Assembly: GCF_900607235.1 (NCBI RefSeq)
Contig: NZ_LR027849.1
Coordinates: forward strand, 992,001 to 1,056,000
DNA from: Olivibacter jilunii
GTDB lineage: Bacteria > Bacteroidota > Bacteroidia > Sphingobacteriales > Sphingobacteriaceae
Length of the DNA stretch: 64,000 nt
Direction of reading: 5' to 3'
The notes beneath the pieces are model-generated. The model worked only from the letters and a program-made list of their open reading frames with translations, was not told where the DNA came from and made no database searches. The position numbers and the translations under genes are program-made. Of this stretch, positions 39,110-51,728 are shown in pieces; position 1 is the first letter of the stretch, and each line of letters opens with the position of its first letter.

Positions 39110-40270
39110 ATGATTATGGACACCATATCGAGAGAGCAATTTCTAGGGTTGGCAAATGTAAAAAGCGATCGCTGTATCACCATCTACATGCCAACCCACC
39201 GTTCCGGTTTTGAAGTGAACGAAAAACAAGACCGGTTATTATATAAGAATATATTGAAGAATGTGGAAAAGCAGGTTCTTGATTCAGGCGGAGACAAAGC
39301 AGACATACAACAATTGCTTAAGCCAAGCTATGAATTGTTAGATGATAAGGAATTTTGGTATAAACTGGATTATGGTTTGGCGCTATTCATCACAGCAGAC
39401 TCTTTTTTGGTCAAAAAACTACCCATATCAATAAAAGAGGAAGTCTATGTTAATAACACCTTTTATCTCACACCTATTTTCCCGCTACTTAATAATGATA
39501 TACATTTCTATGTACTAGCCATTAGTAAAAACGCAACGGCTTTTTATAGAGGGACTGCCTTTTCTATTGAAGAACTGAGCATTGAGGGTTTACCAAGAGG
39601 TATGGATGATGTCATCCATTTTGAAGAGAAAAGTGGCCAGAGGTTGTTCAGAGCAGGAGGGAGCCCAGCAACCGGCATAGGTAGTGCTCATGGGCATGAC
39701 GCTGGACTCGCAGATGAAGAAGAATATGTGGCAGCTTATTTAAAAGAGGTCGATCAAACATTATGGAAGGAAAAATTGGGAAATGAGAAAGCGCCTTTAC
39801 TATTAGCCGGGGTAGCATATATGGCAGCGAAATATAGACAGATCAGTCGGTATGGAAATATTGTACCTGAATATTTAGCCGGTAATTACGAGCGGGTAGA
39901 CACCCACATCATTTTTGAAAAATCGAGAAATATGATGATCCCTTTTTTGCAGAAACCGGTCAGAAGCGCGTTAGCAAACTATTATAACAATCTTGGAGGA
40001 GGGACCAGCTGCGACGACTTTTCGAAAGTCATTACAGCCAGTTTTTTCGGACAAGTAGAAAACCTTTTTGTCAAAGAACGAAGTCATGCATGGGGAAAAT
40101 TTGACAAGGATCGTAATCAAGTAACGCTCCATACCGAAAAAGAATATGGTGATGAGTGTCTTGTTAATCAAGCGATCATTCATACTATTCAGAACGGTGG
40201 AAATATATATGTGTTATCCGAAGAAGAAATGCCCGACGCAAAATTGCTCGTTGCAAGCCTCCGTTATTAA
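39110..40270 (+). CDS. baeRF-family protein (bacterial archaeo-eukaryotic release factor-like)
   Basis: A 386-aa protein of the baeRF3-type group: CITIYMPTHRSG near the N-terminus, then FYVLAISKNATAFYRGT (an eRF1-domain-2-like strand-helix), a Gly/His-rich loop (GIGSAHGHD) and a C-terminal domain ending NGGNIYVLSEEEMP. The family resembles archaeal/eukaryotic peptide release factors and has been proposed to act on ribosomes under stress; this is not proven. It ends in a four-base overlap with the convergent membrane protein gene. Start could be the first or second ATG (39110 or 39116). Confidence 0.8.
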   Translation: MIMDTISREQFLGLANVKSDRCITIYMPTHRSGFEVNEKQDRLLYKNILKNVEKQVLDSGGDKADIQQLLKPSYELLDDKEFWYKLDYGLALFITADSFLVKKLPISIKEEVYVNNTFYLTPIFPLLNNDIHFYVLAISKNATAFYRGTAFSIEELSIEGLPRGMDDVIHFEEKSGQRLFRAGGSPATGIGSAHGHDAGLADEEEYVAAYLKEVDQTLWKEKLGNEKAPLLLAGVAYMAAKYRQISRYGNIVPEYLAGNYERVDTHIIFEKSRNMMIPFLQKPVRSALANYYNNLGGGTSCDDFSKVITASFFGQVENLFVKERSHAWGKFDKDRNQVTLHTEKEYGDECLVNQAIIHTIQNGGNIYVLSEEEMPDAKLLVASLRY

Positions 40271-41201: not shown

Positions 41202-43151
41202 ATGAAGAAGAGAATTGCATTTATAAGCGAACATGCCTCACCCCTTGCCATGTTAGGCGGAATAGACAGTGGAGGACAGAATGTGTATGTTACGGAGCTC
41301 GCCAGACAGCTCGCCAAAGACGGCTATGCTATTGACATTTTTACACGAAGTGATTGCGATAGACTACCTCGAATAGTGCGACTGTTTCCGGATGTAAGAG
41401 TTATCCATGTCAATGCAGGGCCACAGCAAAGCATACCAAAAGAACAATTATTTGACTTCATGGAGGCCTTTAAGGACGACATGATCACCTTTATTGAATC
41501 AGAAGGAATAGATTATGCTTTGATACACGCCAACTTTTGGATGTCGGCATGGGTTGGTCTATCCCTAAAATTGAGATATCGTATTCCATTGGTTGTGACG
41601 TTCCACGCCCTGGGTAAAGTTCGGCGATTACATTTACAGGAAGATGATAAATTTCCTCAAGAACGAGTGACTATTGAAGAAAATATCGCGAGAGAAGCCG
41701 ATTGCATTATTGCTGAATGTCCACAAGATAAACAAGATTTAATTAGCATGTACAACGCTAATGCGAAACGAATAGCCGTTGTCCCTTGTGGTTTTAATCC
41801 CACGGAATTTTATCCTATCGATAAAATGTACGCACGTATGCTTTTAGGACTTCAGAATGATGAAAAAATTATTTTACAATTAGGACGCATGGTTCCGAGA
41901 AAAGGAGTGGATAACGTAATCCATGCGCTAAAATACTTGAAAGGGGATTTTAAAGTAAGACTTCTGGTTGTAGGAGGAGAAGGAAACGCTGAACAATTTA
42001 TGGCCAGTGCTGAATTGAAGCGCCTTCAGAAAATCGTAGAAGAGGAAGGTGTTTCCTCATACGTCGAGTTTATTGGACCAAAGAAGCGAGAAGAATTGAA
42101 ATATTATTACAGTGCAGCAGATGTTTTTGTTTCCACTCCGTGGTACGAGCCCTTTGGAATTACACCTTTGGAAGCAATGGCCTGTGGGACACCTGTAATC
42201 GGTTCAAACGTAGGAGGCATTAAATATAGCGTTGTAGATGGAGTAACCGGTTATTTAGTACCGCCTAAAAAACCTGTTGAATTGGCTAACAAGATGCAAA
42301 GGCTTTTGAAATCGGAGGGTGGCTTAATGGGATTACAGGGTATCGATAGAGTAAATCATCTTTTCACCTGGCAGAACGTCAGTAATGCGATCATGATGAT
42401 ATATGAGTCGCTTATTGATCCGGATTTTATTGTTTATAGAGATGAGTCGCAACTTATAGCACATGCTTTTGAAGAAGCGGCTTCCACATTTCAGTTCTCA
42501 GCCGCTCTACTTTCGCCTGCTATCCTGGAAGCTGGTAGTGTTATCTGCAAAGGCTTTTCAAAGGGCAAGAAGATGCTAATATGTGGCAACGGAGGAAGTG
42601 CGGCGGAGAGTCAACATTTCGCTGCAGAGCTTGTAGGTCGTTTCGACATTGAGCGAAGGCCAGCTCTTCCAGCCATCGCGCTTACTGCCGATACGTCTAC
42701 ATTAACGGCATGGGCAAACGATTTTTGTTTCGAAGAAGTATTCGCAAGACAAGTCGAGGCCCTTGGTAATAAGGGCGATATCTTGTTTACAATTAGCACA
42801 AGCGGTAACTCAGAAAACATATTGCACGCAATAAAAAAGGCTAAGAAACTGGGAATGATCTGTATTAATTTACTGGGGAAGAAAGGAGGAGAAGCCTATC
42901 GTTTCGGAGATGTTAATATCATTGTCCCTTCCGATAGTACACAACGCATTCAAGAAATACAATTACATGTCATCCATTCGATCTGCACGTTGATTGAACA
43001 ACGTATGTTTTCGTCGGAGGGATTGGTCCGCGAGACCGGTGAATTAAGGGCAACTACTAAGCGATTAATGAAAAACCGGGATGAACGCTTAGGATACGCG
43101 GTTTTAAACACTAACGCATATTATCTGACAAAACAACATCATGCAAGTTAA
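41202..43151 (+). CDS. Fusion of GT4 glycosyltransferase and GmhA-type sedoheptulose-7-P isomerase
   Basis: A 649-aa protein with two enzymes in one chain. Residues about 1-415 are a GT-B glycosyltransferase of family 4, similar to sucrose-phosphate-synthase-like enzymes: LGGIDSGGQNVYVTELAR at the N-terminus and EPFGITPLEAMACGTPVIG in the nucleotide-sugar domain. Residues about 440-620 are a SIS domain close to GmhA (ICGNGGSAAESQHFAAELVGRF, TSGNSENIL, QRIQEIQLHVIHSI with the catalytic Glu and His positions), which makes D-glycero-D-manno-heptose 7-phosphate. The following genes encode the next two steps. ATG at 41202 fits; the gene overlaps gmhB by 11 bases. Confidence 0.85.
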   Translation: MKKRIAFISEHASPLAMLGGIDSGGQNVYVTELARQLAKDGYAIDIFTRSDCDRLPRIVRLFPDVRVIHVNAGPQQSIPKEQLFDFMEAFKDDMITFIESEGIDYALIHANFWMSAWVGLSLKLRYRIPLVVTFHALGKVRRLHLQEDDKFPQERVTIEENIAREADCIIAECPQDKQDLISMYNANAKRIAVVPCGFNPTEFYPIDKMYARMLLGLQNDEKIILQLGRMVPRKGVDNVIHALKYLKGDFKVRLLVVGGEGNAEQFMASAELKRLQKIVEEEGVSSYVEFIGPKKREELKYYYSAADVFVSTPWYEPFGITPLEAMACGTPVIGSNVGGIKYSVVDGVTGYLVPPKKPVELANKMQRLLKSEGGLMGLQGIDRVNHLFTWQNVSNAIMMIYESLIDPDFIVYRDESQLIAHAFEEAASTFQFSAALLSPAILEAGSVICKGFSKGKKMLICGNGGSAAESQHFAAELVGRFDIERRPALPAIALTADTSTLTAWANDFCFEEVFARQVEALGNKGDILFTISTSGNSENILHAIKKAKKLGMICINLLGKKGGEAYRFGDVNIIVPSDSTQRIQEIQLHVIHSICTLIEQRMFSSEGLVRETGELRATTKRLMKNRDERLGYAVLNTNAYYLTKQHHAS

Positions 43152-43761
43152 TAGAAAGGCAGTGTTCTTAGATAAAGACGGAACGATCATACCAGACATT
43201 CCTTATAACGCCGACCCAAATAGAATTACCTTTGAAAAAGGGGTTGTCAGAGGTTTAAAGGAATTAGCAGCTAACGGTTTTGTCTTTATCATCATAACGA
43301 ATCAGTCAGGCATCGCAAAAGGTTATTTCACGGAGGATGAGATTTTTGAGGTAAAAAAAGCATTGGCCCGACTGTTTATTGAAGAAGGATTACCACCTTT
43401 TGAAGGGTTTTATTTCTGTCCTCATCATCCTGACGGTATTGTCTCTCGTTTTTCCTATGCATGCAACTGCAGAAAACCCCAGCCTGGATTGCTGGAGCGG
43501 GCTGCCGAAGACCATCACATTTCACTAAGTCAATCTTGGATGATAGGTGATATCTTGAATGATGTTGAAGCAGGAAATCGTGCAGGATGTAAAACCATAC
43601 TTATAGATAACGGCAATGAGACAGAATGGATGGTTGATGGTTATTATAGGAGACCATACTACGTTGCATCTGATTTTTTAGAAGCTGCTAATAAAATTAT
43701 AACTCATTTAAGTACAGTAGATCATGAGCCAAAGATTAATAGATTTAGTCCATCAGTTTAA
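43141..43761 (+). CDS. gmhB: D-glycero-D-manno-heptose 1,7-bisphosphate 7-phosphatase
   Basis: HAD-IIIA phosphatase of 206 aa that removes the 7-phosphate of heptose 1,7-bisphosphate. Motif I is FLDKDGTIIPD, followed by NQSGIAKGYF, a zinc loop (CPHHPDG...CNCRKPQPGL) and motif IV MIGDILNDVEAG. The last 38 bases overlap the start of the kinase/cytidylyltransferase gene, showing tight coupling. Length and motifs are typical for GmhB. Confidence 0.92.
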   Translation: MQVNRKAVFLDKDGTIIPDIPYNADPNRITFEKGVVRGLKELAANGFVFIIITNQSGIAKGYFTEDEIFEVKKALARLFIEEGLPPFEGFYFCPHHPDGIVSRFSYACNCRKPQPGLLERAAEDHHISLSQSWMIGDILNDVEAGNRAGCKTILIDNGNETEWMVDGYYRRPYYVASDFLEAANKIITHLSTVDHEPKINRFSPSV

Positions 43762-45220
43762 AGAGAAGAAAGTACTCGTTATTGGCGATTTTATTTTAGA
43801 CGTTTTCATAAACGGAACGACTAGCAGGATCTCTCCTGAAGCTCCGGTTCCTGTAGTGGATGTACAAAAAAAGATGCTATGCTTGGGTGGGGCCGGAAAT
43901 GTAGCTGCAAATCTTCAGGCGCTAGGAGCTACGACGCTCCTTTGCAGTGTCATTGGAGAAGACCTTTATGAATCGTCTGTAAAGCCTTTATTAAAGCGGC
44001 ATAAAATTCAAGAACAATATTTGGTGCATGATAATAAAAGAAGAACGGAAGTGAAAACACGTGTTCTTGCAGATCAACATACGATTGTTCGTTTCGATGA
44101 AGGTGATCACTGTTCCCTGAGTGAATCTTCAGAATCGCTTCTGATTGACCTCTTAGCGGATGCATATCAAGCTTGCGATGCTGTAATAATTGCCGATTAT
44201 GAAAAGGGCGTAATCAGTGCACGCGTAATCGCTGCATTGATTCAGCTACAGACGCGTTACCCAAGGTTCATAGCGATCGATTCCAAGCGATTGTTTTCTT
44301 TTAGCGCATTGAGGCCGACTGTGGTGAAGCCAAATTATAAACAGGCCCTTAATTTACTTAATATAGAAACTATGCCTGATAGGATTGCGCAGGTAGACCA
44401 AATTTCCAAGCAACTCATCGAAAAAACGAGGGCTAAATATGTTGCTCTTACCTTGGATTCGGATGGTGCAGTTTGGATCGAAAGAGGGCAAAAATCCTTA
44501 CATCTACCGGTCGATCCCGTTTATAATCCAAATGTCTGTGGGGCAGGAGACACCTACCTGGCTACAGCAACTTTGGCACTTGTTTCCAATGCCGAGAAGA
44601 TAGAAGCCGCCCAAATTGCAGCCATCGCTTCACATTGTGTAATTGAAAAGTCGGGAACCTCCGTTTGTCATGCAATAGATATTGTTGATAAAATAGTGAA
44701 TAAGACAAAAATTTTAACTTCTACGTCGTTATTGACTAGCCTTACAGATCAACTTAAAGCAAAAAATAAGCGAATTATTTTCACGAATGGCTGCTTTGAC
44801 ATCATGCATTGCGGGCACACACACTACCTACAGGAAGCAAGAAAAATGGGCGATGTACTAATTGTTGGTGTAAATTCCGATGAAAGCGTGCGCCGTTTAA
44901 AAGGAAAAAGCAGACCGATTAATATACTGAAAGATCGAATGCATGTTTTAGCGGCATTCTCATCAATTGATTATATCATAAGTTTTGGTAATGAAAATGA
45001 TGAAGATAACCCAGCAAATTTAATACGGGCATTGAAACCCGATATAGTGGTGAAGGGAGAGGACTATAGAAACAAACAAATGCCCGAATTGCAAGCTATA
45101 AATGAAGTTGGTGCCAAATTGGTGCTCTTACCTTTTACGCATGGAAAGTCAACTACCAACATAATTAGACGTATCCAGGAAAATTCATCGCCAAACCAAG
45201 TCACCAAAATGAAAGCTTAA
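43724..45220 (+). CDS. hldE: Bifunctional heptose-7-P kinase / heptose-1-P adenylyltransferase
   Basis: A 498-aa HldE/RfaE protein. Residues about 1-320 are a PfkB-type kinase that phosphorylates heptose 7-phosphate at O1, with FILDVFINGTTSRISPEAPVPV near the N-terminus and the GAGD catalytic motif in NVCGAGDTYLAT (about 270). Residues about 340-490 are the nucleotidyltransferase that makes ADP-heptose: FTNGCFDIMHCGHTHYL with the HxGH motif, then NSDESVRRLKG. Together with GmhA and GmhB it completes synthesis of ADP-D-glycero-D-manno-heptose. The next gene starts one base after its stop. Confidence 0.95.
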   Translation: MSQRLIDLVHQFKEKKVLVIGDFILDVFINGTTSRISPEAPVPVVDVQKKMLCLGGAGNVAANLQALGATTLLCSVIGEDLYESSVKPLLKRHKIQEQYLVHDNKRRTEVKTRVLADQHTIVRFDEGDHCSLSESSESLLIDLLADAYQACDAVIIADYEKGVISARVIAALIQLQTRYPRFIAIDSKRLFSFSALRPTVVKPNYKQALNLLNIETMPDRIAQVDQISKQLIEKTRAKYVALTLDSDGAVWIERGQKSLHLPVDPVYNPNVCGAGDTYLATATLALVSNAEKIEAAQIAAIASHCVIEKSGTSVCHAIDIVDKIVNKTKILTSTSLLTSLTDQLKAKNKRIIFTNGCFDIMHCGHTHYLQEARKMGDVLIVGVNSDESVRRLKGKSRPINILKDRMHVLAAFSSIDYIISFGNENDEDNPANLIRALKPDIVVKGEDYRNKQMPELQAINEVGAKLVLLPFTHGKSTTNIIRRIQENSSPNQVTKMKA

Positions 45221-46288
45221 ATGACTACATGGCATGGCTGTAAAAATATACTCGTGATTCGAGCAGATAATACAGGAGACGTACTCATGTCGTCTCCTGC
45301 AATCCGAGCGCTTAAAGATAGCTTTAATTGTAGGATTACATTGTTAACATCAACAGATACATCAGAAGTCGTTTCACTGTTGCCTATGGTTGATGAAACC
45401 ATTGCAGTCGATTTGCCCTGGGTTAAGTTAAAAGCCAATCATGCAACTCATATAGTAGAAAAACTAGTTTCACAATTGAAAGTGGCATCGTTTGATGCTT
45501 GCGTGATTTTTACCGTTTACAGTCAAAGTCCGTTACCCGCAGCAATGTTAGCATGGATGGCGGGAATTCCGAGACGTCTAGCATATTGTCGAGAAAATCC
45601 TTATGAGCTTTTAAATGATTGGATTCCTGAGAAGGAACCCTACGAACTTATTAAACCTCAGGTCGAACGTGATCTCGACTTAGTTGAGCGTGTTGGGGCT
45701 GTAGCAAAGGAGAAAAAAATAACAGTAGCGATTAAGGAAAATGCCATTTCAAGCGTAAGAATCAAACTCGAAGCTTTGGGAATAAATCTATCGAAACCTT
45801 TCATTGTACTACATCCAGGTGTGAGTGAAGAAAAAAGGCAGTTTCCCGAAGAAAAATGGGAAGAGCTCGCTAAAGAAATGTTAAAGCTATTAGATACACA
45901 GATTGTGTTTTCCGGCTCGGATAGTGAAAGTTCAATAACAAACCGCTTGAAAGATCGTGTGAAAGATAACTCTTTTTCAACCGGAGGCCTTTTCCGAATA
46001 GATGAGTTTGCAGCACTTCTCCAAATGTCCAAACTTGTCATATCTGTCAATACAGCTACCGTCCATTTAGCGACGGCCGTTGAGACTCCTCTAGTTGTAC
46101 TTTATGCTCAAACAAATCCACAACACCATCCTTGGATGGGTAATGCACGCGTGCTTGAATATAGTATTGATGAACAGATCAAAAGCAAAAATGAAGTTAT
46201 TCGCTATGTTGATCGAAAATATTACGCTGACTACTTGCCTTTACCATCGGTGAATGATATCATGCAAGCGGTATTGTCTATGTGGTGA
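45221..46288 (+). CDS. GT9 glycosyltransferase, ADP-heptosyltransferase-like
   Basis: A 355-aa GT-B protein of family 9. The N-terminal half begins ILVIRADNTGDVLMSSPAIRALK, the classic heptosyltransferase start; the C-terminal half has FIVLHPGVSEEKRQFPEEKWEEL and VSVNTATVHLATAVETPLVVLY, the donor-binding loop. It directly follows hldE, so ADP-heptose is the expected donor; the acceptor is unknown. It is the last gene of the plus-strand string and ends two bases from the end of the convergent GT9 gene. Confidence 0.88.
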   Translation: MTTWHGCKNILVIRADNTGDVLMSSPAIRALKDSFNCRITLLTSTDTSEVVSLLPMVDETIAVDLPWVKLKANHATHIVEKLVSQLKVASFDACVIFTVYSQSPLPAAMLAWMAGIPRRLAYCRENPYELLNDWIPEKEPYELIKPQVERDLDLVERVGAVAKEKKITVAIKENAISSVRIKLEALGINLSKPFIVLHPGVSEEKRQFPEEKWEELAKEMLKLLDTQIVFSGSDSESSITNRLKDRVKDNSFSTGGLFRIDEFAALLQMSKLVISVNTATVHLATAVETPLVVLYAQTNPQHHPWMGNARVLEYSIDEQIKSKNEVIRYVDRKYYADYLPLPSVNDIMQAVLSMW

Positions 46289-46290
46289 TT

Positions 46291-47256
46291 TTATATATTA
46301 CACAACACTGTATTGTTGAAATGTTGAAGCACCTTTTCGACATTTGGCTTTCTTTGACAATCTATTATTTGCTGCCTTGTAGGAGTTAGGGGGCCCCACC
46401 GATGAGGTTCACCATCCATACTAACGACCACTGCAGGCACCTGCAGTGCATAGGCTATATGGGCTACCCCTGTGCAGTTGGATAATAATCCCCTCGCTTG
46501 TTTAAGTAAAAGGGCGATCTCATCTAAATCTGTTTGACCGACAAGAAATAATGGCGGGCGGTTCATATGTGCTGATAGTTCGTTGGCAATCGTTTCTTCC
46601 TCTTTTGTCCCCGTAATAGCGACATCATAACCCGCTTCTAAACAACGGTTGGCTATTTGCGCAAAGTACTTTGGATTCCATCTACGAGATTCGCCACGTG
46701 ACCCAGGATGTATACAAACGAAATTCCCCGGCGTTAAATGGAATTTTTCGCAGATATGACGATCGTCTTTTAGAAGCGGAAATTCGAGTTGTTTACCTGC
46801 ATCAGGTATGCCGAGATGATGCATCAAATATAAGTGCCGTTCAATCTCATGCAAGTGTTCAGGATAGGGAACAAAATGTTCATTGTTTGGTCGAAAGAGT
46901 GAATCCTTGAAAAAGCCAGCCAATTTATTTGCATCAAATAATGAAACGAGTGCATTAACATAGGTGCCATTTCCCTGCATTTGTATTACCAAATCAAATT
47001 TACGCCTCTGCATATCTTGTAGAAAGGCCAAAATCTTTTTCGGTTCAATGGGCTGCTCAGGCAGCCCCGGATAGCCGGGGAAGGGAATGAATTCATCAAT
47101 ATAATTGGCAAAACGATGTTGCAGATGTTGTGTACCCGGCAGTCCTATCCAAGCAATACGCGCATTCGGATACGCTTGTCTTAATGAGCGTATTGCCGGT
47201 ATCGCACATAAAAAATCTCCTAATTGTAAGGCTCTGAAAATTGCGATTGATTTCAT
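46291..47256 (-). CDS. GT9 glycosyltransferase, second heptosyltransferase-like protein
   Basis: A 321-aa family 9 glycosyltransferase: SIAIFRALQLGDFLCAIPAIRSL at the start, VCIHPGSRGESRRWNPKYFAQIA in the middle and LLSNCTGVAHIAYALQVPAVVV near the end. Only moderately similar to the GT9 at 45221, so probably a different acceptor. The start codon overlaps the GT2 gene upstream by four bases (ATGA). Part of the minus-strand half of the heptose block. Confidence 0.85.
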   Translation of the reverse strand: MKSIAIFRALQLGDFLCAIPAIRSLRQAYPNARIAWIGLPGTQHLQHRFANYIDEFIPFPGYPGLPEQPIEPKKILAFLQDMQRRKFDLVIQMQGNGTYVNALVSLFDANKLAGFFKDSLFRPNNEHFVPYPEHLHEIERHLYLMHHLGIPDAGKQLEFPLLKDDRHICEKFHLTPGNFVCIHPGSRGESRRWNPKYFAQIANRCLEAGYDVAITGTKEEETIANELSAHMNRPPLFLVGQTDLDEIALLLKQARGLLSNCTGVAHIAYALQVPAVVVSMDGEPHRWGPLTPTRQQIIDCQRKPNVEKVLQHFNNTVLCNI

Positions 47257-48242
47257 TTTCCGATCTTAATATTATAAACGGTTCGGTATTTAATAGAACC
47301 ATACAGCTGCCAAAAAATAGATAAGTACGGTATTAGTATTGAAGTAAAAACCATTTCTGCAATATGAGAGGGTGATTTACTGGTTCCTCTCAGACGTATT
47401 AAAATAAATTTAGCGGTAAGAAACAACCAAAAACTTAGACTGGCAAAAAAGGCCCACTTCAGGTTCACATGCCATAAGAGAACCATGGAAATCAATAGCA
47501 ATAAAAGACTGTAATATAAAGCATTTGTTGGATGGCCGATTCGGGCTTGATAGAGACTTGGAAATTTCTTTGCCAATAACGCATTATATATGCCTTTCTT
47601 TTGTTCTTTTATGCTAATTCCCCATTTGGCCTTTCTAGCTGGATGAATAACAACGGCTTTGTTAAGTTTTATTATTGGGATTTTTGCACGGAGAAGCTTA
47701 AAATGCAAGTCGCTGTCTTCTCTCCATGCCATTTTAAATCGTTCGTCAAAACCTCCGACATGGTATAGCGCTTGTTTCGTACAAATACAATTAGCCGTGA
47801 TAAACTCTGCAACCTCCAATTGTGCCGTATTCCTTTCAAAATCTGTCGGGCTCTCGGGGGTTGGTACATATACTGATCCTGTATATACGATTTTCTCCTC
47901 ACCGTTATAGGCGTCAAAAATTTCCTGAAGCCAAAGTTCATCGGGAATACAATCATCATCAGTGAACGCAACCAGGTGTCCATCAGCGTATAACCATCCT
48001 AGGTTTCGGGCTGCAGCCGGTCCTTTTTTGCATTCAGTATAAAGATAAGTTATACGATTTTCAAAAGCGGTATTAAACGTAGCTACCAGCTCTTCCGTTT
48101 CTTTGTCATAACCATCACCCACCACAATAATGTCATATAAACGCTGATTAAGTGTTTGTTTAGTCAAAGCGTCTAGACATCGTGACAATAACATCGTTCT
48201 TTGGTAAGTCGGAATTACTACAGTTATCCTAAACATATCCAT
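47253..48242 (-). CDS. GT2-family glycosyltransferase with C-terminal membrane helices
   Basis: A 329-aa GT-A protein: RITVVIPTYQRTMLLSRCLDAL, then VAFTDDDCIPDELWLQ with the DxD-type metal motif, and WREDSDLHFKLLRA with the catalytic base region. Two hydrophobic segments at the C-terminus (about residues 238-285) suggest a membrane-attached transferase. The donor sugar is unknown. It lies between the carbamoyltransferase and the GT9, with four-base overlap to the latter and eight bases to the former. A later ATG (48236) is an equal start. Confidence 0.88.
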   Translation of the reverse strand: MDMFRITVVIPTYQRTMLLSRCLDALTKQTLNQRLYDIIVVGDGYDKETEELVATFNTAFENRITYLYTECKKGPAAARNLGWLYADGHLVAFTDDDCIPDELWLQEIFDAYNGEEKIVYTGSVYVPTPESPTDFERNTAQLEVAEFITANCICTKQALYHVGGFDERFKMAWREDSDLHFKLLRAKIPIIKLNKAVVIHPARKAKWGISIKEQKKGIYNALLAKKFPSLYQARIGHPTNALYYSLLLLLISMVLLWHVNLKWAFFASLSFWLFLTAKFILIRLRGTSKSPSHIAEMVFTSILIPYLSIFWQLYGSIKYRTVYNIKIGK

Positions 48243-48250
48243 ACGGCACC

Positions 48251-50026
48251 CTAAAAACTAACAAGATTTTCGTCCAAGACCATTCTTTCAGGAACATTGA
48301 CATAATCCTTCTGAATTAGAAAGGATCCTATGATAAGCGCATCGAAGGGGGATGTCCAAAAGCATTCAATAGCATCTCTTGGTGTGCATACAATTGGCTT
48401 TCCCAATGTGTTAAAAGAGGTATTTACGAGTACAGGCACTCCTGTTTTCCGTTCGAACGCCTTGATAAGTCGGTAATAAAGTGGATTTTGTTTTTCATTA
48501 ACCGTTTGAATACGCGCAGTACCATCGACGTGCTTTACGGCTGGTATTTGCGTCGCTTTATCGGGAATCACATCATAGATGAACAGCATAAACGGTGACT
48601 GTTTTGCTCCCACAAACCAATTTTCGGCGTCCTCTTCCGTTACAACAGGTGCGACGGGTCGAAAGTCTTCGCGATCCTTTACCTCATTTAATTTGGCTTG
48701 CATTTCAGGACTTAACGGCGAAGCCAAGATAGAACGACTTCCTAAGGCTCTTGGGCCATATTCCATCGCACCCTGAAACCATCCGATAATTTTATCTTGA
48801 GCAAGTAACGTTGCGGTCTCTTCCACTATGTCATGCATTTTGATATAAGGAATTTTATTTCGTTCCAAAATACGTTGTATGTCACTATCGGAGTAAGAGG
48901 GGCCTAAATATACGTCCTGCATGATCGAAGTCTTTTTACTTTCTCTACGTTCTTCCCGATCTTTTAATATAGCAGCCCCTAAAGCTGTACCGGAATCACC
49001 GGCAGCAGGCTGCACCCACACATTCTTGAATGGACTTTTATCCCTGATACGGGCATTTAAAACACAATTGAGAAATACACCGCCGGCGAGACAAAGATTT
49101 TCTTCCCGCGTCACCTCATAAAACCAATTCAACAACTCCAATATACGCTCTTCTAAAACATACTGAAGCGAACGTGCAATGTTAAAATGGTGTGCGGTAA
49201 AGGGAGCGTTTCTTAAGCGCTGTGGGCCAAATCTCTCAGAAAGTCGCAGATCGCTTATTTCATATTGTCCGCTTCCTGTTAAGCGCACAATCTCTCTAAA
49301 TTCATCAACAAAAACAGGCTCACCATATGAAGCTAAAGCCATTACTTTATATTCGTCAGATGATCGTAGAAATCCGAGATGCGCTGTGATATCTTCATAC
49401 AACAGGCCTAGGGAATGGGGCAGCTGTACTTGTTGTATCAACTCCAAGCCATTTTGGTTTCCAACGTAATAAGAACTTGATGCTGTTTCACCCCGACCGT
49501 CCATAACGAGCACGGCTGCTGCCTCAAAAGGAGAAGGAAAAAATGCACTGGCTGCATGGGACAGATGATGATCCGTAAAATGCCAGATCCAATCGTTTGT
49601 CCTTGCATTTAAAAAGGAGGATTGCAGATGGTGTGGGTAACCATCAACCAATTGTCGTGGAGCATTAATGATAGAGGAAAGAAAAAGATTTCGCCACGGC
49701 TCGGAATCTTTATCGTGTTCTGTATTTCTAACAAAAGGAATATCTGCCCATGGCCTCTTCTCATCCCCAGGGTTAACCAATAAAAAGGGATCAAACGAAT
49801 AAGCGATGTGATCAACCGCAGACAAGGTGATTCCTGCTTGCTTTAGACAAAAATCAATTGCATGATAAGGTAGTTCATAGGTCGAAAATGGAATGGGGCG
49901 TTTACCATGTTTGATTTGCGTGAATCGTTCATCTTCGGCGGCTGCAATTAGGTGTCCATTTTCGATTAAACAAGCTGCGGAGTCATGAAAAGCTGCGTTA
50001 ATTCCTAAGGTATACATATCTTTCAT
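48251..50026 (-). CDS. Carbamoyltransferase of the NodU/CmcH family
   Basis: A 591-aa enzyme that transfers a carbamoyl group from carbamoyl phosphate to a hydroxyl of a sugar or antibiotic. The N-terminal ASKHA-type domain (about 1-370) has NAAFHDSAACLIENGHLIAA, DHHLSHAASAFFPSPF with the conserved His pair, and VMDGRGE. The C-terminal YrdC-like-associated part (about 400-580) has GWFQGAMEYGPRALGSRSILASP. Members act in Nod factor and cephamycin synthesis and in bacterial sugar decoration. Here it heads a three-gene string with GT2 and GT9, suggesting O-carbamoylation of the heptose-containing product. Confidence 0.92.
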   Translation of the reverse strand: MKDMYTLGINAAFHDSAACLIENGHLIAAAEDERFTQIKHGKRPIPFSTYELPYHAIDFCLKQAGITLSAVDHIAYSFDPFLLVNPGDEKRPWADIPFVRNTEHDKDSEPWRNLFLSSIINAPRQLVDGYPHHLQSSFLNARTNDWIWHFTDHHLSHAASAFFPSPFEAAAVLVMDGRGETASSSYYVGNQNGLELIQQVQLPHSLGLLYEDITAHLGFLRSSDEYKVMALASYGEPVFVDEFREIVRLTGSGQYEISDLRLSERFGPQRLRNAPFTAHHFNIARSLQYVLEERILELLNWFYEVTREENLCLAGGVFLNCVLNARIRDKSPFKNVWVQPAAGDSGTALGAAILKDREERRESKKTSIMQDVYLGPSYSDSDIQRILERNKIPYIKMHDIVEETATLLAQDKIIGWFQGAMEYGPRALGSRSILASPLSPEMQAKLNEVKDREDFRPVAPVVTEEDAENWFVGAKQSPFMLFIYDVIPDKATQIPAVKHVDGTARIQTVNEKQNPLYYRLIKAFERKTGVPVLVNTSFNTLGKPIVCTPRDAIECFWTSPFDALIIGSFLIQKDYVNVPERMVLDENLVSF

Positions 50027-50762: not shown

Positions 50763-51728
50763 ATGCAAACTATCGCTTATCATGCATCTCATGAACAATT
50801 TAGCCCAACAGACCTATTAGGTTGGGCTATACTAGCGGAACAGTGCGGCTTTACGGCTATACATTGCTCTGATCATTTTCATTCTTGGAGCATAACCCAA
50901 CAACACAGCGGCTATGCTTTCACTTGGCTAGGCGCTGCCATGCAATCTACCAGGCTTCCTTTTGGTTTTGTATGCGCCCCTGGGCAGCGTTATCACCCTG
51001 CTATAATTGCCCAGGCTATTGCGACGCTTGGATATATGTTTCCAGATCGGTTATGGGTATCTTTGGGTAGCGGCGAAAATATCAACGAACACATCACAGG
51101 AGACAACTGGCCCGATAAAAAATTCAGAAATGAACGTTTGAGAGAATGCGCGACCATTATTCGCGCTTTATTGGGAGGCAAGGAAGTAAGCTACGAGGGT
51201 CATGTGCGTGTAGACAGGGCCAAACTTAACACGCGACCCAACAAACCCATTCCAATTTTCGGCGCTGCTGTAAGTGTGGAGACGGCGGGTTGGGTAGGTA
51301 AGTGGGCAGATGGTTTGATTACAATTAGCAGGCCGTATAACGAATTGAAGGAGGTAGTGACTGCATTCAGGAAAAATGGCGGAGAAGGGAAACCTATGTT
51401 TTTAAAAGTGCAATTGTCGTATGCAACATCAGAGGAACTGGCCCTTGTAAATGCGTACGAACAATGGAGGAATAATTTACTAGATCCAATACTTCTAAGT
51501 GATATAGCCACGATAGAAGAATTCGATGCGCTTGGATCATCCGTTAGCTTTGAGGATATACCCAAAAAAATAAGAGTATCCAGTAATTGGCAGGATCAGC
51601 TACAGTGGTTGGAGCAAGACTTGTCTCTTGGCTTCGAACATCTTATTCTTCATAATGTCAACATCTATCAAGAAGAATTTATCCGTGATTTCGGAAAATT
51701 CGTTGTCCCAAGGCTAAAAAAGCGCTAG
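50763..51728 (+). CDS. LLM-class flavin oxidoreductase (TIGR03885-type)
   Basis: A 321-aa TIM-barrel flavoprotein: IAYHASHEQFSPTDLLGWA, HCSDHFHSW and LWVSLGSGENINEHI are typical of the luciferase-like group annotated as non-F420 flavin oxidoreductases (TIGR03885), related to F420-dependent glucose-6-phosphate dehydrogenase. Bacteroidota lack F420, so FMN is the likely cofactor. Relatives often lie near alpha-glucosidase/trehalose genes, as here at 60 kb. It overlaps the convergent gene by four bases. Confidence 0.88.
   Translation: MQTIAYHASHEQFSPTDLLGWAILAEQCGFTAIHCSDHFHSWSITQQHSGYAFTWLGAAMQSTRLPFGFVCAPGQRYHPAIIAQAIATLGYMFPDRLWVSLGSGENINEHITGDNWPDKKFRNERLRECATIIRALLGGKEVSYEGHVRVDRAKLNTRPNKPIPIFGAAVSVETAGWVGKWADGLITISRPYNELKEVVTAFRKNGGEGKPMFLKVQLSYATSEELALVNAYEQWRNNLLDPILLSDIATIEEFDALGSSVSFEDIPKKIRVSSNWQDQLQWLEQDLSLGFEHLILHNVNIYQEEFIRDFGKFVVPRLKKR

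What the first reader, a model, noticed from the sequence alone, without database searches (positions are those of the whole stretch)
41202..50026. Compact ADP-heptose and carbamoyltransferase cluster without HldD
Nine kilobases hold GmhA (fused), GmhB, HldE, two GT9, a GT2, a GT4 domain and a NodU/CmcH carbamoyltransferase in two convergent, overlapping gene strings whose ends are two bases apart. This covers the pathway from sedoheptulose 7-phosphate to ADP-D-glycero-D-manno-heptose, but the epimerase HldD used for LPS core heptose is not present here. No LPS core, O-antigen or polymerase gene is nearby. This points to a dedicated carbamoylated D,D-heptose glycan or small molecule, rather than standard LPS. 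The product is unknown to me.
Basis: partly seen in the sequence, partly recalled or inferred. Interest (0 to 1): 0.75.

Follow-up and report, generated by a model that had tools for sequence, protein, structure and literature searches.

The report
Stress-linked carbamoylated heptose glycan gene cluster
This bacterium carries the parts list for making a rare seven-carbon sugar and building it into a carbamoyl-tagged glycan; much the same gene set turns up in several bacterial phyla, including members that lack LPS, and looks related to a Streptomyces cell-wall-stress operon whose product is still unknown.

Summary
In detail: seven intact genes at 41202-50026 encode a GT4-GmhA fusion, GmhB, HldE and a GT9, convergent (2-bp gap) with GT9, GT2 and a NodU/CmcH-type carbamoyltransferase. 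The genome has no HldD over the model cut-off, one HldE and one clear GmhA. The cluster is not private: of 105 distinct carbamoyltransferase loci from many phyla with enough flank, 77 also carry GT4, GmhB and GT2. Four of four Chloroflexota carriers tested lack LpxC, and Streptomyces and Nonomuraea carry versions, so it is not an LPS core locus. Gene number and order in a Streptomyces version fit the 12-gene S. coelicolor cwg operon, a vancomycin-induced, partly sigma-E-dependent operon of unknown product. The window genome's version is split: a GT9, a second GT4-like enzyme and an SDR sit together about 28 kb downstream, as in 5 of 5 genomes tested. In family relatives the carbamoyltransferase co-occurs with the heptose adenylyltransferase (50 of 51 against 111 of 250). 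Most likely it makes a carbamoylated, heptose-containing envelope oligosaccharide under stress. Product, acceptor, location, role and D,D configuration are inferred, not shown.

The parts
41202..43151 (+). GT4 glycosyltransferase (residues 1 to about 405; MshA / sucrose-phosphate-synthase-like) fused to GmhA, sedoheptulose 7-phosphate isomerase (about 417-606)
   Evidence: fusion also in 10 of 47 family loci; GT4 orthologues in 102 fetched loci (some are the same strain twice) keep K80, R155 and N27 in 102 of 102
43141..43761 (+). GmhB-type HAD-IIIA phosphatase (heptose 1,7-bisphosphate 7-phosphatase)
   Evidence: nearest solved structure 3l8e, a D,D-heptose 1,7-bisphosphate phosphatase; DxD 104 of 104 and cysteines 100-104 of 104 conserved
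43724..45220 (+). HldE: heptose 7-phosphate kinase plus heptose 1-phosphate adenylyltransferase; only copy in the genome
   Evidence: GAGD 27 of 27 and HxGH 28 of 28 conserved
45221..46288 (+). GT9a, heptosyltransferase-like
46291..47256 (-). GT9b, heptosyltransferase-like
47253..48242 (-). GT2 glycosyltransferase with C-terminal hydrophobic segments (about residues 238-284), probably membrane-anchored
   Evidence: hydropathy only
48251..50026 (-). O-carbamoyltransferase, NodU/CmcH family (solved relatives: decarbamoylnovobiocin carbamoyltransferase, GdmN, TobZ)
   Evidence: motifs conserved in 135 loci

Best explanation
The cluster makes a carbamoylated oligosaccharide that contains several heptoses and belongs to the cell envelope, separate from LPS; it is the Bacteroidota version of the gene set known in Streptomyces coelicolor as the cwg (cell wall glycan) operon. 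[quoted passage not shown] HldE phosphorylates C1; GmhB removes the 7-phosphate; [quoted passage not shown] With no HldD in the genome this is the likely end form. Two GT9 enzymes here and a third in the satellite locus add heptoses; the GT4 and the GT4-like satellite enzyme start or extend the chain with other sugars; the probably membrane-anchored GT2 acts at the inner membrane; the carbamoyltransferase caps a hydroxyl. The satellite SDR is a modifying reductase of unknown substrate. The neighbourhood (DUF4142, baeRF ribosome hibernation factor, a weak Usp match, DUF892, amylase-family enzymes) and the cwg precedent point to induction by envelope or osmotic stress. Shown here: gene content, single-copy status, conservation, co-occurrence with the heptose adenylyltransferase, occurrence in genomes without LpxC. 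Inferred: all reactions, their order, acceptor, configuration, location and role.
For: Of 126 distinct loci (chosen by the carbamoyltransferase only), 105 have at least 7 kb on both sides: GT2 in 103, the GT4-like partner GTX in 87, GmhB in 84, GT4 in 80, two GT9 in 78; GT4, GmhB and GT2 together in 77. 46 of 47 carrier genomes tested have the adenylyltransferase, in the cluster or elsewhere; the exception has only the carbamoyltransferase and GTX in the fetched stretch. Within the family 50 of 51 carbamoyltransferase-positive genomes have it against 111 of 250 others (Fisher 1e-14, relatedness not corrected). In 10 of 47 family loci HldE and the GT4-GmhA fusion are both in the cluster, and never one without the other. 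In Segetibacter HldE lies directly beside the satellite GTX-SDR pair. No LpxC in 4 of 4 Chloroflexota carriers tested. A version in Streptomyces sp. CA-256286 with 12 genes counted from the epimerase, a shorter one in S. fungicidicus, one in Nonomuraea. In cwg the isomerase is eighth and the bifunctional synthase ninth of twelve, as; it is vancomycin-induced and partly sigma-E dependent.
Against: No product is known for any member. S. coelicolor cwg was matched by gene number, order and names in paper passages, not by sequence, and one name does not fit (cwgD is called a putative dehydratase, where one search has a HAD hydrolase). The actinomycete versions lack the SDR and have an NAD-dependent epimerase. 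HldD is somewhat more common, not rarer, in carbamoyltransferase-positive family genomes (15 of 51 against 39 of 250, p 0.027), so L,D-heptose may be used in some. Companions are not always near: of the 105 loci 25 lack GT4 and 21 lack GmhB; of 47 family loci 19 have no GT4 in the fetched stretch, and I did not look for it elsewhere in those genomes. 111 of 250 family genomes without the carbamoyltransferase also have the adenylyltransferase, so heptose is not exclusive to this system. Two more GT9 genes lie elsewhere in the window genome.
Confidence: 0.66

Rival explanations
1. It is an LPS core locus of this bacterium, using D,D-heptose in place of L,D-heptose, with carbamoylated core heptose as in Pseudomonas.
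For: Pseudomonas LPS core has a carbamoylated heptose, ascribed to the putative carbamoyltransferase WapO (passages). The window genome has LpxC and its only HldE and clear GmhA are here.
Against: The set occurs in genomes without LpxC and in actinomycetes. In the 12 Burkholderiales genomes it exists beside an adenylyltransferase elsewhere (12 of 12) and HldD (10 of 12). At E 1e-150 the carbamoyltransferase is missing from 250 of 301 family genomes, which an LPS core gene should not be.
Confidence: 0.1
2. It makes a diffusible carbamoylated sugar metabolite or glycoside (natural-product type), not a surface glycan.
For: The carbamoyltransferase's solved relatives act on antibiotics (names). 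The GT4 is nearest to enzymes that I recall as sucrose-phosphate synthase and MshA, which act on small phosphorylated acceptors; K80 and R155, which align with the recalled phosphate-binding K78 and R154 of MshA, are invariant in 102 of 102.
Against: Six glycosyltransferases with the satellite, one with hydrophobic segments; no scaffold-making enzyme among the neighbours scanned; conservation across phyla; cwg is regulated with cell-envelope genes.
Confidence: 0.17
3. Exopolysaccharide or capsule locus that borrows polymerase and export genes from elsewhere.
For: GT2's best NCBIfam match is the EPS enzyme EpsD, though far under its cut-off (114.7 of 370). An ABC exporter family recurs in 20 of 89 loci clustered, all Betaproteobacteria by their titles.
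Against: No polymerase, flippase or chain-length gene among the recurrent families or the annotated genes of four plasmid records; ORF lists of four relatives were read by eye only.
Confidence: 0.12

Closest known systems
Streptomyces coelicolor cwg operon (SCO6179-6190), putative cell wall glycan, sigma-E regulated
   Same: Phosphoheptose isomerase and bifunctional synthase side by side among many transferases. A Streptomyces sp. CA-256286 version counted as 12 genes carries carbamoyltransferase, GT2, HAD, GT9, GTX, GT4, GmhA, HldE, GT9 with isomerase and HldE in the same eighth and ninth places.
   Different: Window version has GT4 and GmhA fused, is split into two loci about 28 kb apart, has an SDR, no epimerase in the cluster, and sits in a diderm. 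cwg sequence itself not compared; cwgD's name does not fit.
Pseudomonas LPS core region with WapO (PA5005), putative carbamoyltransferase
   Same: Carbamoyltransferase with heptosyltransferases; carbamate on a heptose (passages).
   Different: There the heptose is L-glycero-D-manno in the lipid A-linked core, with heptose kinases; no such kinase found here.
MshA (mycothiol) and cyanobacterial sucrose-phosphate synthase (protein identities of 3c48 and Tll1590 recalled)
   Same: GT4 half is closest to these among solved structures, 212 and 268 bits.
   Different: Fails the MshA model cut-off (305 of 462.5 bits); two of four recalled acceptor residues differ (F for Y110, A for T134).
NodU / CmcH O-carbamoyltransferases (TobZ, GdmN, decarbamoylnovobiocin carbamoyltransferase)
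   Same: Both domains, motifs conserved.
   Different: NodU model: 192 of a required 1000 bits, so not NodU itself; acceptor unknown.
Bleomycin sugar genes blmC-blmG (recalled)
   Same: From memory: carbamoyltransferase with ADP-heptose-synthase-like and GT9-like genes in a Gram-positive.
   Different: Not tested; one search gave one paper, not read.

Membership tests
cwg-type cell wall glycan operon | GmhA and HldE in one gene string with several glycosyltransferases | tested here: met
   also in L129, L130, L219
cwg-type cell wall glycan operon | Sequence homology of the core genes to actinomycete operons of this make-up | tested here: met
   tblastn of window proteins: carbamoyltransferase 43-46%, GmhA 40-44%, HldE nucleotidyltransferase 50%, GT4 38%, GTX 34% in L219
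cwg-type cell wall glycan operon | Sequence match to S. coelicolor SCO6179-6190 itself | not tested
   that genome was not among the records reached; matched by count, order and names in passages of PMC5839063 and PMC6767563 only
cwg-type cell wall glycan operon | Induction by cell-wall antibiotics through sigma-E | not testable with these tools
   needs expression data
LPS core heptose locus | Restricted to organisms with lipid A | tested here: not met
   LpxC absent in 4 of 4 Chloroflexota carriers, 3 of them MAGs; present in 12 of 12 others, one labelled Bacillota
LPS core heptose locus | HldD epimerase in the genome | tested here: not met
   best 100 of 274.6 bits
LPS core heptose locus | Kdo transferase or heptose kinase genes in the locus | tested here: not met
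   none among the 40 window proteins scanned
NodU nodulation factor carbamoyltransferase | Passes the NodU equivalog model | tested here: not met
   192 of 1000 bits
NodU/CmcH carbamoyltransferase superfamily | Both Pfam domains with conserved motifs | tested here: met
   242 and 225 bits; motifs in 135 loci
MshA, mycothiol glycosyltransferase | Passes the MshA equivalog model | tested here: not met
   305.2 of 462.5 bits
Wzy- or ABC-dependent exopolysaccharide locus | Polymerase, flippase or export genes with the core | tested here: inconclusive
   no such family recurs with the core except an ABC exporter in 20 of 89 loci, all Betaproteobacteria; recurrent families were not all scanned

The most novel reading that the evidence does not exclude
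One and the same carbamoylated heptose glycan, made by a gene set of about ten proteins, is shared by monoderm and diderm bacteria of at least seven phyla (phyla by record titles, several of them MAGs) as a stress-induced envelope component, so that ADP-heptose is not an LPS hallmark; and the GT4-GmhA fusion reflects channelling, the GT4 glycosylating a heptose phosphate or sedoheptulose 7-phosphate in a sucrose-phosphate-synthase-like step.
Probability: 0.3. Interest if true: 0.82.

Novelty: new variant of a known kind. Interest (0 to 1): 0.62.

Why it matters
The cwg operon was, with hrdD, one of only two known in vivo sigma-E targets of S. coelicolor before 2019, and its product is still called only a predicted or putative cell wall glycan in the passages seen. 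Showing what looks like the same set in Gram-negatives, with a heptose and carbamate signature, says what to look for chemically and offers many organisms to look in. It would also mean that ADP-heptose, discussed as a mark of Gram-negative bacteria in infection (PMC10221265, seen only in a search listing), is to be expected in LPS-free bacteria.

Tried and rejected
Rejected: LPS core (carriers without LpxC; patchy in the family). Rejected: that this is peculiar to the window genome. Rejected: that the GT4-GmhA fusion is a unique oddity or sequencing error; it is in 20 of 104 GT4-bearing loci incl. the window (some strains twice, 17 of 96 after removing identical GT4 rows), among them a Chloroflexi MAG and Nitrospira moscoviensis (in the latter the isomerase half is only 27% identical). 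A quick GT4 tree needs 5 changes of the fused state, at least 3 on starred branches, so one origin was not shown.

Led nowhere: paper searches for carbamoylated heptose or for the gene combination listed no description of this cluster apart from cwg (judged from titles and abstract starts); (SCO numbers) led to cwg, one search found the cwg papers among many unrelated ones. One search (sucrose-phosphate synthase structure) listed only a review, not read. MshA residue numbers K78, Y110, T134, R154, the identities of 3c48 and Tll1590, and the bleomycin comparison are recalled. GmhA motifs rest on only 7 loci because of a coverage filter.

Not done: structure prediction and fold search; viral-contig scans; sequence comparison with S. 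coelicolor; the 197 plasmid records beyond the five opened; a search for the GT4 string elsewhere in family genomes whose locus lacks it; GTX elsewhere in carriers other than the five tested.
Full report
WHAT IS THERE. Seven ORFs at 41202-50026 form two convergent strings with a 2-bp gap between their ends. Pfam and NCBIfam give a GT4-GmhA fusion, GmhB, HldE and GT9a on the plus strand and GT9b, GT2 and a two-domain carbamoyltransferase on the minus strand. Of the four heptose-enzyme models only the adenylyltransferase domain passes its curated cut-off; GmhA misses by two bits, GmhB and the HldE kinase by more. Active-site motifs are nevertheless kept in relatives: DxD and cysteines in GmhB (100 to 104 of 104), GAGD in the kinase (27 of 27), HxGH in the nucleotidyltransferase (28 of 28), carbamoyltransferase motifs (135 loci). 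Nearest solved structures agree with these assignments.

THE GENOME. The window is part of a 6.7-Mb genome rated 100% complete. It has one HldE, one clear GmhA, no HldD over cut-off, LpxC and five GT9 genes. Two GT9 are in the cluster, one in the satellite described below; the other two lie beside a SixA-like gene and a kinase-like gene (assigned by eye). The family is Sphingobacteriaceae by inference: contigs of same-family genomes have exactly the lengths of named Mucilaginibacter and Parapedobacter contigs (236694 and 132778 bases).

A CONSERVED SET. In four relatives found with the GT4 (read) the same genes stand together without HldE or GmhA and with one more gene, a GT4-like enzyme here called GTX. 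In three the order is the same convergent one; in the fourth (L046) the genes lie on one strand with GTX opposite. Pooled with plasmid records and family genomes and made distinct by the carbamoyltransferase there are 126 loci; of 105 with at least 7 kb each side, GT2 is near in 103, GTX 87, GmhB 84, GT4 80, HldE nucleotidyltransferase 23, SDR 22, GmhA 20; 78 have two GT9 genes; GT4, GmhB and GT2 are all present in 77. Loci were chosen by the carbamoyltransferase, so these are counts of companions. Against this: in 19 of 47 family loci no GT4 lies in the fetched stretch, some showing only carbamoyltransferase and GT2.

THE MISSING PARTNERS. The window cluster has no GTX. It is in the genome about 28 kb past the cluster (match at C2:1070697-1071632), between a third GT9 and an SDR. 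I tested four other genomes whose main cluster lacks GTX; all 5 of 5 have it elsewhere, in one stretch with a GT9 and the SDR. The SDR ends in a nearly fixed (T/R/K/Q/L)E(T/S)SWP tail and also occurs in 25 of the 136 cluster loci given to (30 hits at 40% identity or more; the other five are the satellites). In Nitrospira moscoviensis a single locus runs GT9, GTX, GT4-GmhA, SDR, GmhB, GT9, carbamoyltransferase, GT2, so the window genome holds what looks like the same system split in two. In Segetibacter HldE sits beside the satellite SDR.

HEPTOSE IS THE COMMON DENOMINATOR. I gave 47 genomes (42 of the 80 loci plus 5 genome handles) to a search for the heptose 1-phosphate adenylyltransferase: 46 have it over cut-off, in the cluster or elsewhere. 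The one without, Pedobacter sp. Leaf194, shows only carbamoyltransferase and GTX. In the family sample of 301 genomes the carbamoyltransferase (E 1e-150) is in 51 and the adenylyltransferase (E 1e-30) in 161: 50 of 51 against 111 of 250 (Fisher 1.4e-14; shared ancestry not corrected, and some family genomes are the same strains as loci). In the 47 family loci the GT4-GmhA fusion and HldE are in the cluster together in 10 and neither is in the other 37. HldD (E 1e-70) is in 22 of 47 and in 54 of 301 family genomes: 15 of 51 carriers and 39 of 250 others (p 0.027). So HldD is not needed, which favours D,D-heptose, but it is not avoided either.

NOT LPS. LpxC is absent from 4 of 4 Chloroflexota carriers (Dictyobacter aurantiacus, an isolate, and three MAGs) and present in 12 of 12 others tested, including the MAG labelled Bacillota. 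Streptomyces sp. CA-256286 has a version with epimerase, carbamoyltransferase, GT2, HAD, GT9, GTX, GT4, SIS, rfaE2, GT9 and two more glycosyltransferases; S. fungicidicus a shorter one; Nonomuraea gerenzanensis one with nine of the ten parts, the SDR missing. The Streptomyces epimerase clusters with a UDP-glucuronate-decarboxylase-like family found near 15 Betaproteobacteria and one Mucilaginibacter locus; it is far under the HldD cut-off (63 of 274.6 bits).

THE KNOWN RELATIVE. Passages of PMC5839063 name the S. coelicolor cwg cluster SCO6179-6190, with SCO6186 cwgH a phosphoheptose isomerase and SCO6187 cwgI a bifunctional synthase/transferase: eighth and ninth of twelve, as SIS and rfaE2 are when counted from the epimerase. 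cwgB, C, E, G and J are called transferases, which fits; cwgD is called a dehydratase, which does not match the HAD hydrolase in fourth place. Passages of PMC6767563 call cwg a 12-gene operon predicted to make a cell wall glycan, induced by vancomycin and partly sigma-E dependent; PMC13011467 passages report cwgA induced by salt; PMC3902916 passages repeat the sigma-E link. The founding paper (Hong 2002) is not held. Identity with cwg thus rests on count, order and names, plus sequence homology to other actinomycete operons.

CONTEXT. Window neighbours include DUF4142, a baeRF protein, a flavin-dependent oxidoreductase, a low-affinity iron permease, DUF2383, a Usp match under its cut-off, an SDR and two alpha-amylase-family enzymes; further on DUF892 and another amylase-family enzyme. 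A family of Zn-alcohol dehydrogenases recurs in 15 of the 89 loci clustered (representative checked). Paraburkholderia and Streptomyces copies sit among catalase, ferritin-like, STAS and ANTAR genes. This suggests stress induction; no statistic was made for it.

THE FUSION. GT4 and GmhA are one protein in 20 of 104 loci with a GT4, in Bacteroidota, one Chloroflexi MAG, Nitrospira moscoviensis and one MAG labelled Bacillota. They are neighbours but separate in Streptomyces. Among solved structures the GT4 half is nearest to Tll1590, recalled as sucrose-phosphate synthase, and then to 3c48, recalled as MshA. K80 and R155 are invariant in 102 of 102 orthologues and align with MshA K78 and R154, which I recall as acceptor-phosphate ligands. 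A phosphorylated acceptor is thus possible; this is a lead only.

VERDICT. Real, ordinary in its parts but unusual as a whole: a widely spread, uncharacterised carbamoyl-heptose glycan system, of which cwg is the only likely member that I found discussed in print (searches, open-licence papers only).

Noticed in passing
L213:13918-16784 (genome C2 about 1069.9-1072.8 kb, outside the window): Satellite locus GT9, GTX, SDR that belongs to the same system; the SDR C-terminus ends in a nearly invariant tail (ETSWP or ESSWP) in the hits from several phyla.
   Followed up: yes
L073: A contig labelled Candidatus Wolfebacteria carries a GT4 almost identical to Ralstonia pickettii; probably a contaminated MAG.
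   Followed up: no
L093: A MAG labelled Bacillota carries the cluster with fusion and also LpxC; the label may be wrong or the lineage a diderm one.
   Followed up: no
L213:10284-12261: Two neighbouring genes of about 330 aa; the first matches the MvdD pre-ATP-grasp domain, the second looks similar by eye; possibly a graspetide-type peptide system, no precursor sought.
   Followed up: no
window 50763-51728: TIGR03885-type LLM oxidoreductase related to F420 enzymes, next to the cluster; also near it in the same-genus genome (L161, 77%) and in L061, L064, L103, L190 (52-53%).
   Followed up: partly
L072-L128, Betaproteobacteria: An ABC exporter family of about 890 aa recurs in 20 loci; the L127 member has a C-terminal response-regulator receiver domain. 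A PIG-L deacetylase family recurs in 9 loci and a second GT2 in 16.
   Followed up: partly
window 39110-40270: baeRF-type (ribosome hibernation factor) gene upstream of the cluster; homologues also lie near clusters L106 (32%) and L168 (41%) and beside the satellite in L223 (36%).
   Followed up: no
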